From Steinernema hermaphroditum (Eukaryota; Nematoda; Chromadorea; Rhabditida; Steinernematidae): a stretch of DNA of 64,000 nt. This document shows, in pieces, positions 7,854 to 60,236 of this stretch; within the stretch, counting starts at the first letter, position 1, and every line of letters starts with the position of its first letter. The notes under the pieces were generated by a model. It was not told where the DNA came from. It made no database searches and saw only the letters and a list, made by a program, of their open reading frames with translations. The stretch spans positions 16,678,001-16,742,000 of the forward strand of contig CM059622.1 in assembly GCA_030435675.1 (NCBI GenBank). Reading direction: 5' to 3'. Both the position numbers and the translations under genes were made by a program.

Positions 7854-10220
7854 TCAATCAAAGAGCCTACACTGCTTCTTCCTGTGATCCAACCTGTTTC
7901 CGTTCTTATCCTTAGCGTTCTTTCTGACTTTCTTCGGCAGCACATACATGCGGTCCTTCGGTCGGCAGCCAAACGCATTCGTAAACTCGTCCAACTGCTG
8001 CACCCACGCGTTCATCCTGATAGTGGGCCGTGGATGCGCTCCGTTCTTGGTGTGCACGTAATCCTCGAGGGGAGATCGTTCGTGTCCACAAGTCATCATC
8101 AAGCCGCCAATGAAGAACCACTGCTCGTTGCTGAAGCTACTCTTGTCGTGATACAACGCCGATTTGAACACCGGCGAGCGGAAAAGGGTTGCCATCACCA
8201 CTCGAAAGGCCACTCTAGCGCCTTCCACGTCGCAGAAACCCTCCCTCCGGACGGATTCTTTGTCTTGGTAGAGGGACGTTCCATTGGGTGCCGCTACGGT
8301 AAACGATTCGTAGTAGTCTTTGTAGCACTGGAATGTGTCGTCGTATCTGGCCAAGCCGATGAGCTCGTTGGCTGCTTTCTTCACCGACGCTCGATTGATG
8401 ATCTTGCTGTCCAGAGAGTGGAATATTTCATGAGCAAGCGTTTGTGCGATTTGGCCGTAGATGAAGCCGGTCGGCATGTTTTTGTTGATGTAGTAGGACA
8501 GAGCAGGCCAGATCATCTAAGACAAGGATAAGGTGACTCTCATGACTCAGAGTGGTCAACTTACCACTGTATCGTACTCATTCACAGCGTTGAAGACGTA
8601 TAGACCGTATTGCGTGTTGTCCACAGTCCAGATGTCGACATATTCTTTTGTGCCTTCGTATGCTGCCCTGTATCGATTCATGGCTTGAACGATAACTCCT
8701 CTTGTCTTCTTGAGAATGCCCTGGCTTCTGAAAGGGGGACTCAATATGATTGGGTTTGATGTTCCGGTCAGGGCTGTGCACAGTCCTGATTCGCGGACTT
8801 TTGGAGGGTTGTTGGCCTTTCAACTACAGACTCTCGACAAATGGGCGAGAATGGTCTTGGTCCCACCACGAAAATACTGAACTTATCTCATGAAAACACT
8901 GTATGGACGATTTTCCTAGTTGCTACCATTTACTCGTGGTCACTGTGATGTTAATCGTTTCGAGACCCGAGTCCTACTCCGTTTGGACCTCGAGTCTAGG
9001 AAGGATGAACTCAGACTCGATGCAAAAGGAGGAAAGCATGCGAGATTACATGGCGGATTACAAAAGCATCCAAAATCGCTACTTTTGCCTAGCCGTGGTT
9101 CCAGCGCGATATCATTGCTAACCAGGGATGGGAGCGAAATCGAGTCAAGGAAACCAGAAGAACAAAACTTACTCATTCATCACCTTCCTCAACATCTGCT
9201 CATTCTTCTCAAATTGCTCAGTGTAGAAGGACATAGCCTTCTTTATGTTAGTCAGATTTCTGGCCGATTGAGGAAAGGACAGTATCGTGTTGATGTTTTG
9301 GATTGAGTCGGCGACGTGCTTCCTCGTTTCGCTAGGAATCCATTTCTGCCTCTAAAGCAGGGCTCACTGCTCCCATAAGCATCTCATCTACCTACCATAA
9401 TGGTTCGAACCGTTTCGCTTTTGAGGTCTTTCGAAAATTTCTCGAAATTCTCCTCTATGTCTTTCGGCAACCAGAGATCGTTTTCCGTTGCAACTTTGGC
9501 CGTTATCAGGTTGAGGTAGGGCGCAAAGGCGTCTTTATAGGTAAGGTTGAAGACGGCTTCGTCGATCTGATCCATGGTCACAGACGCTTCCACTTCTCTG
9601 TATTTTGCCACGATCTTGTACGTTTTTTCGTCGAATCTGTTCGACAAATCGATGAACTCATTGTATCCGTCGACGACTCCCTTGATGTAGGAAGGACAGA
9701 AATCATAGGAGCACTCAATCGATGTGTATTCTGGAAAGACGACCATATGCTTTGTGTGGCCCTGTGTACCTGTGACATAGGAGTCCACGAATTTGAGGAC
9801 CTTGGTTTTGTGGTCCACCACAATGGATGCATAGATCTTGTACTTCCCATTCGTTCCACGGGAGATATCCGATGCAAATCGTTTTCCCATTTCAAAAAGT
9901 TTTTTCTCAAAGTGGTCGCGTTTGACGATCTGATGCATTACGGTAAATCAACCTAATTACTCTTCACTAACCTCACGGAAGAAGTCCAAAACAGGGTCGG
10001 AATAGTTGTTCACATGTTTCCGGATCTCTTTGTTGTAGGCCTGCTTCATGTTATACATGAAAGAGTCATTCCCATTTCCGTGGTTGTTGCAGACGAATTC
10101 GTAGAAGTCGTCACATGGCTTGACCGTTTCGGAGAAGAGGTGATCGAGTTCAAAGTGGTTGTTATAGGCCGATACGACCATAGAAGAGGCCGCCAAATAT
10201 AAGGCGACGAGCCGAAACAT
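7854..10220 (-). CDS. Neprilysin-like M13 zinc metallopeptidase, short, secreted
   Basis: Five exons (9972-10220, 9396-9929, 9173-9351, 8565-8727, 7854-8516) join in frame to 595 residues. A signal peptide (MFRLVALYLAASSMVVSA) is followed by PCDDFYEFVC, the hallmark M13 N-terminal motif. The zinc motif HEIFH is at about 404-408. The third ligand Glu (about 467, in REGFCD) lies 63 residues after the first His, exactly the neprilysin spacing, with the supporting Asp four residues later. The neprilysin His711 and Arg717 equivalents are present in HPRPTIR. The end QCRLFD replaces the usual CxxW. Typical members are about 700-770 residues and often membrane anchored; this one lacks a transmembrane anchor and about 100-150 residues. 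A secreted enzyme cleaving small peptides is inferred. The catalytic residues look intact. The last residue change Trp to Phe plus one extra residue is unusual. Confidence 0.93.
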
Positions 10221-14059: not shown

Positions 14060-14333
14060 TCATTTTCTTCCATAGTAGCCGTATCCGAAGCCATAACTTC
14101 GTACATAACATCCGTCGAATAGAATGCAGTCAATCTTTGTTTTAGTGCGTTTGCTAGAGCGATCTAATTAGAATAATTTTAAACACTGAAACCTACTCGA
14201 TTTTCCCTGCATGCTCTGTAGTGTTGCCTATATCACGAGGGTCTACGGCTAATTGCGTTTTATTCCTCGAGTCTTCGGCTAATATGGCTAGAGAGAGCAG
14301 CAGCAATAGTGGAATATAGCGGTAAGCATACAT
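14060..14333 (-). CDS. Small secreted Gly/Tyr peptide precursor, copy 2
   Basis: Two exons (14197-14333 and 14060-14153, phase 2) give 76 residues. A signal peptide (MYAYRYIPLLLLLSLAILA) is followed by an acidic propeptide with one N-glycosylation sequon and a KR site in the join IEDKR. The predicted mature part is basic, has two cysteines five residues apart (CILFDGC), then a short Gly/aromatic stretch ending YYGRK. Gly followed by basic residues at the end is an amidation signal, so a Tyr-amide is possible (inference). The layout resembles nematode nlp/cnc antimicrobial-type precursors (YGGYG peptides), but the sequence is not one I know. It is a tandem paralogue of 14603-15036, sharing promoter and 3' flank. 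The TATA box is 41 bases before the ATG. Confidence 0.8.
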
Positions 14334-14602: not shown

Positions 14603-15036
14603 TCATTTTCTACCGTAGTAGTAGCCGTAGCCGTAATTTCCGTAGCCGTACCCATATCCGTAGCCGTAACCGTACCCATATCTAGGGTTGTCGAATACTT
14701 AAAAATCCTGCAATTTCAATTCGACAACCCTACCCATATCCGTAGCCATATCCGTAGCCATATCCGTAGCCGTAGCCGTATCCGTACCCATAACTTCGCA
14801 CATAACATCCATAGAACAGAATGCAGTGAATCTTTATTTTACGTTTGCTAGAATGACCCGACTAAAAGAAGGCTTAACACTGGAACCTACTCGATCTTCC
14901 CTGTATGCTCTGTAGTGTTGCCTATATCACCTTTGTCAAGAAGGTCTACGGCTGACTGCGTTTCATTCCTCGAGTCTTCGGCCAATACGGCCAGAGAGAG
15001 CAGCAGCAATAGTGGAATATAGCGACAGAAATACAT
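14603..15036 (-). CDS. Small secreted Gly/Tyr-repeat peptide precursor, copy 1
   Basis: Three exons (14891-15036, 14734-14847, 14603-14681; phases 2 and 2) give 112 residues. A signal peptide (MYFCRYIPLLLLLSLAVLA), acidic propeptide with an N-glycosylation sequon, and KR site are followed by a basic two-cysteine segment (CILFYGC). Then come about 20 Tyr-Gly units and the end YYYGRK. The second intron (14682-14733) is absent from the paralogue at 14060 and has transposon-like ends. Without splicing, the frame stops at a TAG four bases into the intron. The shared YYGRK ending of the paralogue supports the spliced form. Secreted epidermal antimicrobial or structural peptide is the likely role by analogy with nematode YGG-type peptides; neuropeptide is the alternative. 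Confidence 0.8.
14683..14732 (-). mobile_element. Introner-like 50-base element forming an intron
   Basis: The intron at 14682-14733 starts and ends with a perfect 14-base inverted repeat (TAGGGTTGTCGAAT and ATTCGACAACCCTA). Directly flanking are two identical 8-mers, GATATGGG on the reverse strand (14733-14740 and 14675-14682), a hAT-style target duplication. The donor GT and acceptor AG are built from the duplication's G plus the element ends. Splicing removes 52 of the 58 added bases and leaves +6, one extra Gly-Tyr pair, in frame. The surrounding exon is itself a GGNTAY repeat, so the 8-mer match alone is weaker evidence than the inverted repeat. Confidence 0.7.
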
Positions 15037-20888: not shown

Positions 20889-20923
20889 AGTGAAGAATGC
20901 GTTCTTATAGTTAATCGGAAATC

Positions 20924-21938
20924 ATGTCGCTTGACATGGAGACGTTTTATAACACTTCCTATAATGTCATTGTGCCCCCGAAGATCATAACATATCTCTT
21001 AACATTTTACATAATCTCCACAAACACCCCCCATTCTATGAGAACGTTCTCTAGATTCTTGTGGAACATTCTACTCTGGGACTTCCTTATCCATGTTCTG
21101 TGGCTTGGACTGCACCCCTTTCCGATGATGCCTCTGGTGTGCTTCCGTCTAGATGGCTACCTCGCTTCTTATTTCTTTTCTGAAAGCTTCGCTCATATCT
21201 TCTCAGCAGCCTATCTTACATGTTGCATGAATGAAGGAATCGCAATATTTCTGTCCTTTCAATTTCGACTATTTACCTCGAAATATGGCTCATGGTCTTG
21301 CTCAAAAATATACGTATACGCTTACTGTATTGCTCTACACATGCTACTGTCTTCCGTATTTGTGTGGCTGAACGCCTCTTGGTCCATTCCTGTCGAACAC
21401 TACCCAGAACCTATAGAGCCATCGGAGCGAAGAAACCTATTCTGCTATAAGCCCAGGACACATGAATTCCAGTATTTCCTACTGTATTTCGCTGCTTTTC
21501 TGGTACTAGCTCTCTGTGGGATTACAATCTTGGTCGTCCTCTCCTTCAGGGAGGTGAACAAGAACCGGCACTTGGCTGGCGAGAAAACCGCTCAAATGCA
21601 GGCCAGCTTCCTGAGAAGTCAGGTGCTTCTTTCATGTAATATCCGAACATGGATACCTTATCTAAATATTTATTTTAGGTGTACCGACAATCTTCGGTTC
21701 TGTACCGTATATAATCATCACATCGATGTTACATTTCCCGGACACCTCCCATGCTCGGATAATCGTTATTATTTGCCTGCTTATCGCATCCGTCTACGGT
21801 CCAATCATGTGCACTTTCGCTATGATACTCTTCAAGCCGTATCGGAGAGCTGTTCTCCGGATTCTGAAGAATGCCACCAATGCTGTGCCATTTTCGCTGA
21901 AGACGAAACATTCGGTCATTGCGGTTCAGAAATTGTGA
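20924..21938 (+). CDS. Serpentine chemoreceptor, Srh/Str-like
   Basis: Two exons (20924-21635 and 21679-21938, phase 1) give 323 residues. Seven hydrophobic segments are visible, starting about residues 15-35. The tail pattern fits the Srh/Str superfamily: a charged intracellular loop 3 with Gln/Leu (AQMQASFLRSQVLL), then VPTIFGSVPYII, LLIASVYGPIMCTFAMI, and KPYRRAVLRIL after TM7. These are nematode G-protein-coupled receptors, mostly for odorants in ciliated sensory neurons. I chose the donor T/GTAATA, not the nearer CAG/GTGCTT, because only it keeps the frame across to VPTIFGS. A broken tRNA-Arg follows 52 bases after the stop. Confidence 0.85.
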
Positions 21939-21990
21939 ATACGGATGGAATGAACAATGATATGGCGGATCTGTGGGGTAGAATGCAAGT

Positions 21991-22057
21991 GGCCTCGTGG
22001 CGCAATGGATAACGCGTCGGTCTACGGAACCGAAGATTGCAGGCCCTGCCGAGGTCG
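21991..22057 (+). pseudogene. Broken tRNA-Arg, T loop deleted
   Basis: 67 bases match the tRNA-Arg(ACG) genes perfectly except that the T arm reads GCAGG-C-CCTGC. The seven-base T loop TTCGAAT has been replaced by a single C. This destroys the B box needed for TFIIIC binding and the T loop itself, so the gene should be silent. Acceptor, D and anticodon arms are otherwise unchanged, suggesting a recent event. Confidence 0.9.
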
Positions 22058-26984: not shown

Positions 26985-27106
26985 TAGTCTCTGGAGTCGA
27001 CGCAGTTAACCGAGAAATTCTTTCGCCTTTTACTAAAGAATTCCGTGCGTCGACTCACTTTATGAGTTTATCTCAATTTTTGGACTCCCGATCGCAAGAG
27101 AGGGAT
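26985..27106 (+). ncRNA. U5 spliceosomal snRNA
   Basis: It contains the near-invariant U5 loop 1, CGCCTTTTACTAAAG (27024-27038), closed by the stem AATTCTTT/AAAGAATT. An outer perfect stem GGAGTCGACGCA/TGCGTCGACTC flanks this. The Sm site AATTTTTGG is at 27075-27083, followed by a short 3' hairpin (CTCCCG...GAGGG). U5 aligns exon ends in the spliceosome by contact with loop 1. The 5' end is set from the ACTCTGG-like start and the 86-base spacing to the promoter element; ends are accurate to a few bases. An open reading frame across it is spurious. Confidence 0.92.
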
Positions 27107-28545: not shown

Positions 28546-28708
28546 AAACTTACCTGGCTGGGATCTCCCCGCGATCACCAAGGCGGGGAATCCATGGCGA
28601 GGCTGGGACATTGCACTTTCGCTCCCGGCTGACCCGTGTGGCAGCTCCGAGTTGGAGTTGGCCAACAGCTAAATTTTTGCGTCAGGGGACAGCGTTCGCG
28701 CTTCCCCG
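28546..28708 (+). ncRNA. U1 spliceosomal snRNA, copy 1
   Basis: 163 bases starting AAACTTACCTG, the 5' splice-site pairing sequence in the form used by nematodes. Stem-loop 1 has GCGATCACCAAGGCGGGGA, stem-loop 2 has CATTGCACTTTCGCTCC, and stem-loop 3 has GAGTTGGAGTTGG. The Sm site AAATTTTTG is at 28671-28679. The 3' hairpin GTCAGGGGACAGCGTTCGCG matches the conserved U1 end GGACUGCGUUCGCGCUUUCCCC. A second copy in inverted orientation lies at 60074-60236. Confidence 0.95.
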
Positions 28709-28897
28709 TATAAATCTGTCGTCTGCTCATGGCTGGTATACAAACATGGATGCAACATTATAAAAGACATACAAATATAAAAGACAGATACATTGTCTAC
28801 ATATGTATCTGTCTTTAACCTGACCCGAATTTCGAAAAGCCGATTGAGTTACACTCTCTCCGGGTCGTCTTTGGACGAAAAGACACAAATATTTTAC

Positions 28898-50229: not shown

Positions 50230-51168
50230 CAGAGTTGTCCGGGTACCCGAAAGTCCGGGTACCCGAAAGTTCGGGTACCCGACCCGAAAACCCGAACCCG
50301 AAAACCCGAACCCGAAAACCCGAACCCGAAACCCGAACCCGAAAACCCGAACCCGAAAACCCGAACCCGAACCCGAAAACCCGGCCCAAGAATTTAGGGC
50401 ATTGGTATAACAATCGTTTTATGACCAGTAACAACATGAAACAAATGTAAAAAACCTAGACGAGAAGCTCTTCTTCTTCGTCTAGTGCTGATAATCTTGG
50501 TGCTAGTGCTGATAATCTTGGTAGTTTCGCAGTATTCGACTTCCAATACTTCAACACTTCGTTGCTGTTGTCCAGGCTTGGCGTTGGAGCAGTTAATCTG
50601 TTGTCACGGCGGTAATTTCAAGTTCTTCGGCGATCGAATCGTTTGCTGAAGTTGACGACGAGCCTAGTTCGTGCTTCCTCCTAAAACATTCTTATCATGA
50701 ACAATCCAGACCCGATTCTGCTTACCATGAGTCATAGACTCGAATTCGAGTTTCTTCTGCTTCTTCTGAGGAGCACCTTTTTCAGCCCGATCATGCGTTT
50801 GTTTCTGACGCAGCAGCGCCGGCGTCGAGCGATCGCTGGACTTCTTCATCAGGGTGCCGCATATCTTGGTGCCGCACAACTGTGCGGACACGCAAATGTT
50901 GAATCAAAAGCATTCGCTTCGGGATCACCAGAACTCGGTGAAAACCCGAAACCCGAACCCGAAACCCGAACCCGACCCGAACCCGAAAGTTCGGGTACCC
51001 GAACCCGAAACCCGAACCCGAACCCGAAATTTTCGGGTACCCGAACCCGAAAACCCGAAACCCAAACCCGACCCGAAAACCCGAAAAACCCGACCCGAAA
51101 ACCCGAAACCCAAACCCGACCCGAAAACCCGAAAAACCCGACCCGAAAACCCGAACCCGCCAACTCTG
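50230..51168. mobile_element. hAT-type non-autonomous element, 939 bases
   Basis: Ends CAGAGTTGTCCGGGT and, inverted, CAGAGTTGGCGGGT. It is flanked by a perfect 8-base duplication, gtcagaac (50222-50229 and 51169-51176). Inside each end is an array of CCCGAA/ACCCGAAA units (50240-50392 and 50940-51165). The middle 540 bases include, on the reverse strand, a frame (50664-50891) with CGTKICGTLM ... LLRQKQTH, which looks like a decayed BED zinc finger with the first His changed to Gln. BED fingers are found at the N-terminus of hAT transposases. No catalytic domain remains. Confidence 0.82.
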
Positions 51169-59796: not shown

Positions 59797-60073
59797 GAGA
59801 GCTGATCTTGCGACGGTGAAAGTGCAAAGTTAGTGCAGACGTAATGCGTTATGGCTTGGAGGAAGGTGTTTGAAGGACTTCACAACGAAGCGGCATCACA
59901 TTGATGATTCGTTTAATGTCTTAGATTGGAAATTACTGTAGTGGATGAGTTGAATAGAATGGAAGCATTTCTATTTTGTGTCTTTTCGTCCAAAGACAGC
60001 TCGAGAGAGCTCGATCGATCTTTTTAAATGAGTGTTAGTTGTGTTCATGTCTCTAACAAGCTACAGATTTATA

Positions 60074-60236
60074 CGGGGAAGCGCGAACGCTGTCCCCTGA
60101 CGCAAAAATTTAGCTGTTGGCCAACTCCAACTCGGAGCTGCCACACGGGTCAGCCGGGAGCGTAAGTGCAATGTCCCAGCCTCGCCATGGATTCTCCGCC
60201 TTGCTGATCACAGGGAGATCCCAGCCAGGTAAGTTT
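60074..60236 (-). ncRNA. U1 spliceosomal snRNA, copy 2
   Basis: 163 bases on the reverse strand starting AAACTTACCTG, with the same Sm site and 3' hairpin as copy 1. Substitutions in stem-loop 1 (GCTGATCACAGGG side) and elsewhere partly change pairing: CTGTGATCAGCAAGGCGGAG replaces CCGCGATCACCAAGGCGGGG, which may be a variant or a decaying gene. The promoter block and the 86-base spacing are kept. Confidence 0.9.

What the first reader, a model, noticed from the sequence alone, without database searches (positions are those of the whole stretch)
14675..14740. A 52-base intron that looks like a freshly inserted transposon (introner)
The second intron of the Gly/Tyr peptide gene has a perfect 14-base terminal inverted repeat and an 8-base direct duplication on both sides, as hAT-type elements leave. 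The splice GT and AG come from the element ends plus one duplicated base. Removing the intron leaves six extra bases, so the frame and Tyr-Gly rhythm survive. The tandem paralogue at 14060 lacks this intron, giving a natural 'before' state. Introners that create introns are known in some algae, fungi and animals; I know of none described for this kind of nematode peptide gene.
Basis: partly seen in the sequence, partly recalled or inferred. Interest (0 to 1): 0.88.

Follow-up and report, generated by a model that had tools for sequence, protein, structure and literature searches.

The report
Jumping gene turned intron in worm
A 50-base hAT-type jumping element sits inside a glycine/tyrosine-rich peptide gene of what is likely a nematode worm, and its ends plus one duplicated base on each side spell GT and AG, so it is likely spliced out as a new intron that would add just two amino acids; two more genes with the same kind of repeat carry related copies in the same arrangement.

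Summary
Window 14683-14732 is a 50-bp element with perfect 14-bp terminal inverted repeats between identical copies of CCCATATC. The genome holds 138 exact copies of its end, grouped into 100 insertions. Of 20 complete copies first read, 17 have exact 8-bp duplications, and a 4603-bp copy carries a hAT dimerisation domain (PF05699, E 3.5e-14). On the gene's strand the octamer is GATATGGG: its bordering G joins the element's terminal TA to make GT and AG. Any copy on a G......G octamer would thus give an intron of element+2 nt and exactly two extra codons. I found two further cases (807 and 1883 bp), both in Gly/Tyr repeat genes, both with G......G octamers and frame kept; one has the donor GTAAGG. 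The claimed 'before' paralogue is not one: it lacks the whole repeat. Splicing could not be tested; the C-rich acceptor and a predicted hairpin across both splice sites speak against it. Best reading: a small hAT introner family, likely spliced. The kind is known; I saw no nematode introner.

The parts
14683..14732 (-). 50-bp non-autonomous hAT element with perfect 14-bp terminal inverted repeats
14675..14682 (-). 8-bp target-site duplication, right copy in gene sense (GATATGGG); its first G (14682) completes the acceptor AG
14733..14740 (-). 8-bp target-site duplication, left copy in gene sense (GATATGGG); its last G (14733) begins the donor GT
14682..14733 (-). predicted intron 2, 52 nt, GTAGGG...CCCTAG (splicing inferred, not shown)
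   Evidence: 112 aa spliced, 87 aa if kept
14891..15036 (-). predicted exon 1 (start codon, hydrophobic leader)
14848..14890 (-). predicted intron 1, 43 nt, GTAGGT...TTCTAG
   Evidence: same structure in the paralogue
14734..14847 (-). predicted exon 2 (Lys-Arg site and first part of the Gly/Tyr repeat)
14603..14681 (-). predicted exon 3 (rest of the Gly/Tyr repeat, YYYGRK, stop)
14060..14333 (-). tandem paralogue (predicted 76 aa, one 43-nt intron) that lacks the long Gly/Tyr repeat; not an empty site

Best explanation
A non-autonomous hAT element of 50 bp lies in a Gly/Tyr coding repeat between two copies of the octamer GATATGGG and is likely removed as a 52-nt spliceosomal intron. Shown by sequence: the element, its family, the duplications, the GT and AG formed by the octamer's bordering G plus the element's terminal TA, and the open frame on both sides. 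By arithmetic: for any copy whose duplicated octamer reads G......G on the coding strand, the intron is element+2 nt and the mRNA gains 8-2=6 nt, two codons, whatever the element's length. Inferred: that the spliceosome uses these sites, and that the copies of 807 and 1883 bp in two other Gly/Tyr genes are spliced the same way, the latter with its donor changed from GTAGGG to GTAAGG and a T-rich stretch with CTAAC motifs gained before the acceptor.
For: Family: 223 hits against 14 in the control; 138 exact ends in 100 insertions; 17 of 20 complete copies first read with exact 8-bp duplications; PF05699 in the 4603-bp copy. Need for splicing: without it the frame ends at the element's own TAG, and the C-terminal GRK shared with the paralogue is lost. 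Same geometry in two more Gly/Tyr genes: octamers GGCTACGG/GGCTACGG and GACTACGG/GGCTACGG, frames 99 aa spliced against 76 kept, and (partial) 163 against 135. Octamers G......G make up 0.145 of each tract, so two such hits have chance 0.021 and three 0.003. Two of 100 exact-ended insertions lie in Gly/Tyr tracts: P(>=2) 2e-6, 6e-5 or 1.5e-3 for assumed tract totals of 2, 10 or 50 kb. The donor pairs with this genome's own U1 5' end (two U1 genes in the window) at 7 Watson-Crick positions, as does intron 1 of the same gene; the third case has 8.
Against: No RNA evidence. The acceptor CAACCCTAG is C-rich. The inverted repeats are predicted to pair across both splice sites (-26.4 kcal/mol; shuffles -17.3, z -3.0, 1 of 200 as good). 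TTTTTAAG inside the element could compete as acceptor and would break the frame. The second and third cases may be one insertion followed by gene duplication. Four other intact G......G copies show sense ORFs of 60-122 aa, within the random range. One 1321-bp copy cuts an Srh chemoreceptor frame with an octamer that cannot splice by this rule.
Confidence: 0.75

Rival explanations
1. The element is an ordinary unspliced insertion: the mRNA keeps it and the gene makes an 87-aa peptide cut short inside the repeat, or is on its way to a pseudogene.
For: Kept, the frame stops at once and still leaves a Gly/Tyr peptide of 87 aa; predicted hairpin over both splice sites; C-rich acceptor; other copies of the family are plain insertions, one of them inside an Srh receptor frame.
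Against: Three Gly/Tyr-gene copies all have octamers G......G and open frames on both sides; in the oldest-looking copy the downstream repeat exon is intact although the element has decayed and its donor is nearer to consensus.
Confidence: 0.2
2. An ordinary old intron or a chance hairpin within the repeat, not a transposon.
For: Equal octamers are not rare inside the tract (0.015 for two random octamers); intron 1 of this gene and of the paralogue is also short, 43 nt.
Against: 138 exact copies of the same 14-nt end in the genome, 8-bp duplications on complete copies, and a transposase-bearing copy.
Confidence: 0.01
3. The insertion is spliced only part of the time, so the gene makes two products, a long one (112 aa) and a short one (87 aa).
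For: Donor of middling fit (7 of 11 Watson-Crick positions to U1), weak acceptor and hairpin.
Against: No RNA evidence either way; a special case of the best explanation.
Confidence: 0.04

Closest known systems
Introners of the DNA-transposon type (PMC9860276, passages read)
   Same: Non-autonomous DNA elements with inverted repeats and target duplications that supply all or part of the splice sites; some add whole codons (Aureococcus, with an 8-bp duplication, adds 12 bp).
   Different: Here only three intron-shaped members were found, below the four that survey required of a family; the host is likely a nematode, while the survey's introners in animals were in two groups only (835 animal and land plant genomes); splicing is untested here.
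Maize Ds elements spliced as introns (Dennis 1988, Wessler 1991, Giroux 1994: titles seen in reference lists; not read)
   Same: hAT elements in exons removed as introns.
   Different: Those are mutant alleles in a plant; here the copies lie in the reference genome of an animal, with both splice dinucleotides completed by the duplicated octamer.
Splicing of Tc1 out of C. elegans transcripts (recalled; only a search listing was seen)
   Same: A nematode spliceosome removing a DNA transposon from mRNA.
   Different: Tc1 is a mariner-type element with a TA duplication and is removed mostly at cryptic sites, often imprecisely (recalled).

Membership tests
hAT superfamily | 8-bp target-site duplication | tested here: met
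   window copy exact; 17 of 20 complete copies first read exact, three with 1-2 mismatches
hAT superfamily | Short terminal inverted repeats shared by the family | tested here: met
   138 exact 14-nt ends
hAT superfamily | Transposase with hAT dimerisation domain in a full-length copy | tested here: met
   PF05699 E 3.5e-14, above cut-off, in the 4603-bp copy; the gene was scanned in pieces; other pieces had no hit above cut-off
hAT superfamily | Usual octamer with T at position 2 and A at position 7 (preference recalled) | tested here: inconclusive
   Family: T2 in 89 and A7 in 88 of 127 ends read. The window octamer and the two other Gly/Tyr octamers do not follow it.
Introner | Transposon copy lying in coding sequence with GT...AG borders and frame kept | tested here: met
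   three genes
Introner | Several introns from one family (four or more in PMC9860276) | tested here: not met
   three intron-shaped copies found, possibly two insertions; two searches for further short copies did not complete (and repeats)
Introner | Removal from mRNA by splicing | not testable with these tools
   no RNA data
Introner | Presence/absence among strains or sister species | not testable with these tools
   no relatives of G000 are held; the in-window paralogue lacks the repeat

The most novel reading that the evidence does not exclude
A hAT family in a land-living nematode is a working introner that favours Gly/Tyr coding repeats: each landing on G......G makes a ready in-frame intron that adds two codons, and the copies in this genome show the road from raw insertion (GTAGGG, hairpin intact) to tuned intron (GTAAGG, hairpin broken, T-rich acceptor). 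It would be the first introner family known from nematodes.
Probability: 0.38. Interest if true: 0.82.

Novelty: new member of a known kind. Interest (0 to 1): 0.63.

Why it matters
Where new introns come from is an old question; a 2022 survey of nematode introns discusses why source sequences of gained introns are not found (PMC9169325, passages). Here the source family, the target duplication, the splice geometry and possible later stages lie in one genome, and the window copy still has perfect ends. The arithmetic rule (8-bp duplication with G at both edges gives +6) predicts which insertions can survive in coding sequence and is testable with RNA. In the large introner survey nearly all carriers outside ascomycetes were aquatic, and among 835 animal and land plant genomes only two groups, both animals, had introners (PMC9860276, passages); a land-living worm would be an outlier.

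Tried and rejected
Homologues of the spliced peptide (residues 1-68 scored) in the large protein collection: 3 candidates, none at E 0.001 or better. Four other intact G......G copies tested for coding context: longest sense ORF at the empty site 60, 78, 101 and 122 aa, within the random range (median 76, 95% point 167); one antisense ORF of 184 aa exceeds it, but on that strand the splice rule is not met. Stretches at three TAYGGNTAGGGTTG hits and two GGNTAYGGTAGGGTTGTCG hits were read and look unrelated. The idea that intronic copies lost a strong internal acceptor TTTTTCAG by selection was weakened: 10 of 29 ACT-type ends, window copy included, have the ACTT form that lacks it. The idea that cases two and three are surely independent was dropped: they share a repeat beside the 3' end, but pieces of it stand next to hAT-like sequence in L037 and L124 too, so both readings stand. 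Papers: no nematode introner seen in the listings or in passages of PMC9169325 and PMC9860276; the library is partial and supplements were not open. Coding context was examined for 24 intact copies only (which kept copies with at most one mismatch in the duplication).

Full report
WHAT IS THERE. On the + strand, window 14683-14732 reads TAGGGTTGTCGAAT, 22 bases, ATTCGACAACCCTA: a 50-bp element with perfect 14-bp terminal inverted repeats. On both sides stands CCCATATC (14675-14682 and 14733-14740). The gene runs on the - strand. Its predicted parts are exon 1 15036-14891, intron 1 14890-14848 (43 nt, GTAGGT...TTCTAG), exon 2 14847-14734, intron 2 14733-14682 (52 nt, GTAGGG...CCCTAG) and exon 3 14681-14603 with the stop. 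Spliced, it encodes 112 aa: a hydrophobic leader, a Lys-Arg site, a long run of Gly-Tyr units and YYYGRK. With intron 2 kept, the frame stops at the element's own TAG after 87 aa. The modelled empty site gives 110 aa, so insertion plus splicing adds two codons.

IT IS A hAT FAMILY. The 14-nt end occurs 223 times at up to one mismatch in the 90.6-Mb genome, against 14 for the reversed control. Exact ends number 138: 44 preceded by G and 94 by another base (list joined). They group into 100 insertions if a + end followed by a - end within 5.2 kb is taken as one; 38 have both ends exact. Of 20 complete elements first read, window copy included, 17 have identical 8-bp duplications and three have one or two mismatches; lengths run from 50 to 4603 bp. 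Of 127 distinct ends read (of 138; the rest were not fetched or not distinct), 89 have T at position 2 and 88 have A at position 7 of the octamer. The 4603-bp copy has the hAT dimerisation domain (PF05699, E 3.5e-14, above cut-off). The window copy is the only place in the genome with both 14-nt ends exact and a spacer of 30 nt or less. Two other very short copies with worn ends, 37 and 55 bp, are seen in L048 and L058.

THE SPLICE RULE. The element begins and ends with TA on either strand. If the duplicated octamer on the coding strand is G......G, the last G of the left copy plus T gives GT, and A plus the first G of the right copy gives AG. The intron is then element+2 nt and the mRNA gains 8-2=6 nt, in frame, whatever the length. 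The window octamer in sense is GATATGGG. This is arithmetic on the sequence; use of the sites is inference.

TWO MORE CASES. C1:4836320-4837126 is an 807-bp copy between two copies of GGCTACGG in another Gly/Tyr gene (right inverted repeat with one mismatch). Spliced as GTAGGG...CCCTAG (809 nt) the gene gives 99 aa; kept, 76 aa. C1:4813381-4815263 is an 1883-bp copy, with long sequence between the hAT-like ends, between GACTACGG and GGCTACGG. The predicted intron is GTAAGG...CTAACCCTAG, 1885 nt; the partial ORF is 163 aa spliced and 135 aa kept. There the donor is one step nearer consensus, and a T-rich stretch with CTAAC motifs stands between GACAA and CCCTA, which breaks the terminal pairing. 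As far as the remaining subterminal sequence shows, all three lie in the same orientation to their gene. The last two genes lie 23 kb apart, so one insertion followed by gene duplication is possible. A shared repeat next to the 3' end does not decide, because pieces of it stand beside hAT-like sequence in L037 and L124 as well.

HOW STRONG. Octamers G......G make up 0.145 of each of the three tracts, so two such hits have chance 0.021 and three 0.003. The strict Gly/Tyr motif has 144 places against 3 in the control; the 100 listed places cover 1006 bases, about 1.4 kb when scaled. Two of 100 exact-ended insertions fall in such tracts: P(>=2) is 2e-6, 6e-5 or 1.5e-3 if the tracts are taken as 2, 10 or 50 kb (the three sizes are my assumptions). 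So the family is over-represented there, by target choice, by survival, or both; my data do not separate these. The donor pairs with this genome's own U1 start (AAACUUACCUG, two U1 genes in the window) at 7 Watson-Crick positions, as does the gene's own intron 1; the second case has 7, the third 8 and the paralogue's intron 1 also 8.

AGAINST. No RNA is at hand. The acceptor CAACCCTAG is C-rich. The inverted repeats are predicted to pair across both splice sites (-26.4 kcal/mol against -17.3 for shuffles, z -3.0, 1 of 200 as good). TTTTTAAG within the element could compete as acceptor and would break the frame. Four other intact G......G copies show no sense ORF beyond the random range. Of 24 intact copies examined for frames, one of 1321 bp cuts an Srh chemoreceptor frame with an octamer that cannot splice by this rule. 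So the copies looked at are otherwise ordinary transposon insertions, and only the Gly/Tyr cases look like introns; the coding context of the rest was not examined. The paralogue at 14333-14060 is not an empty site, because it lacks the long repeat.

WHAT WORM. No call names the species. An Srh chemoreceptor frame in the window (PF10318, E 2.6e-13) points to a nematode (that Srh is nematode-specific is general knowledge). Five contigs of 16.7-18.4 Mb and 90.6 Mb in all are like Steinernema hermaphroditum (recalled, untested).

COMPARED WITH WHAT IS KNOWN. Introners that are DNA transposons with inverted repeats and duplications, that take splice bases wholly or partly from the duplication, and that may add whole codons are known (PMC9860276, passages). 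hAT elements acting as introns are known from maize Ds (titles in reference lists; a review table counts transposon-made introns in Oryza, Drosophila, Oikopleura and Zea). So the mechanism is of a known kind. New, as far as searches show, are the host group and the concentration in one class of coding repeat. Three intron-shaped members are fewer than the four that the 2022 survey required, which could explain why such a case was missed.

VERDICT. The hAT insertion I regard as settled; splicing as likely (0.75) but untested; the family as a small introner in a new host group.

Noticed in passing
window 28546-28709 (+), 60073-60236 (-), 26986-27106 (+): Two U1 and one U5 spliceosomal RNA genes by Rfam; both U1 copies start AAACTTACCTG.
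   Followed up: partly
window 842-25138, nine places: Nine tRNA genes by Rfam, several close together around 20.4-25.1 kb.
   Followed up: no
window 20915-22009 (+): Frame with an Srh chemoreceptor domain (PF10318, E 2.6e-13), pointing to a nematode genome.
   Followed up: partly
window 7854-8516 (-): Frame with a Peptidase M13 domain (PF01431, E 1.5e-17).
   Followed up: no
window 50277-51159: Tandem arrays of AACCCG-type units, period 6 to 48.
   Followed up: no
L003 (C1:1643026, element 1321 bp): A copy of the same hAT family cuts an Srh chemoreceptor frame; its octamer TTTTCTCA in gene sense cannot make GT...AG by the G......G rule, so the gene is probably broken.
   Followed up: partly
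L048 and L058: Two very short relatives, 37 and 55 bp with worn ends, also bordered by G on both sides but with no clear coding context.
   Followed up: partly
C3:15011587, C3:15027541, C25:13281, C25:29268, C50:4582 (G000): Five pairs of exact ends about 4.6 kb apart, probably full-length copies; only the first was read. The small contigs may repeat the same locus.
   Followed up: no
own genome: Words like GGTTACGGTAGGG are far commoner than their reversed control (248 against 85 at up to 3 mismatches); of the best-scoring places two were read and look unrelated to this family.
   Followed up: partly
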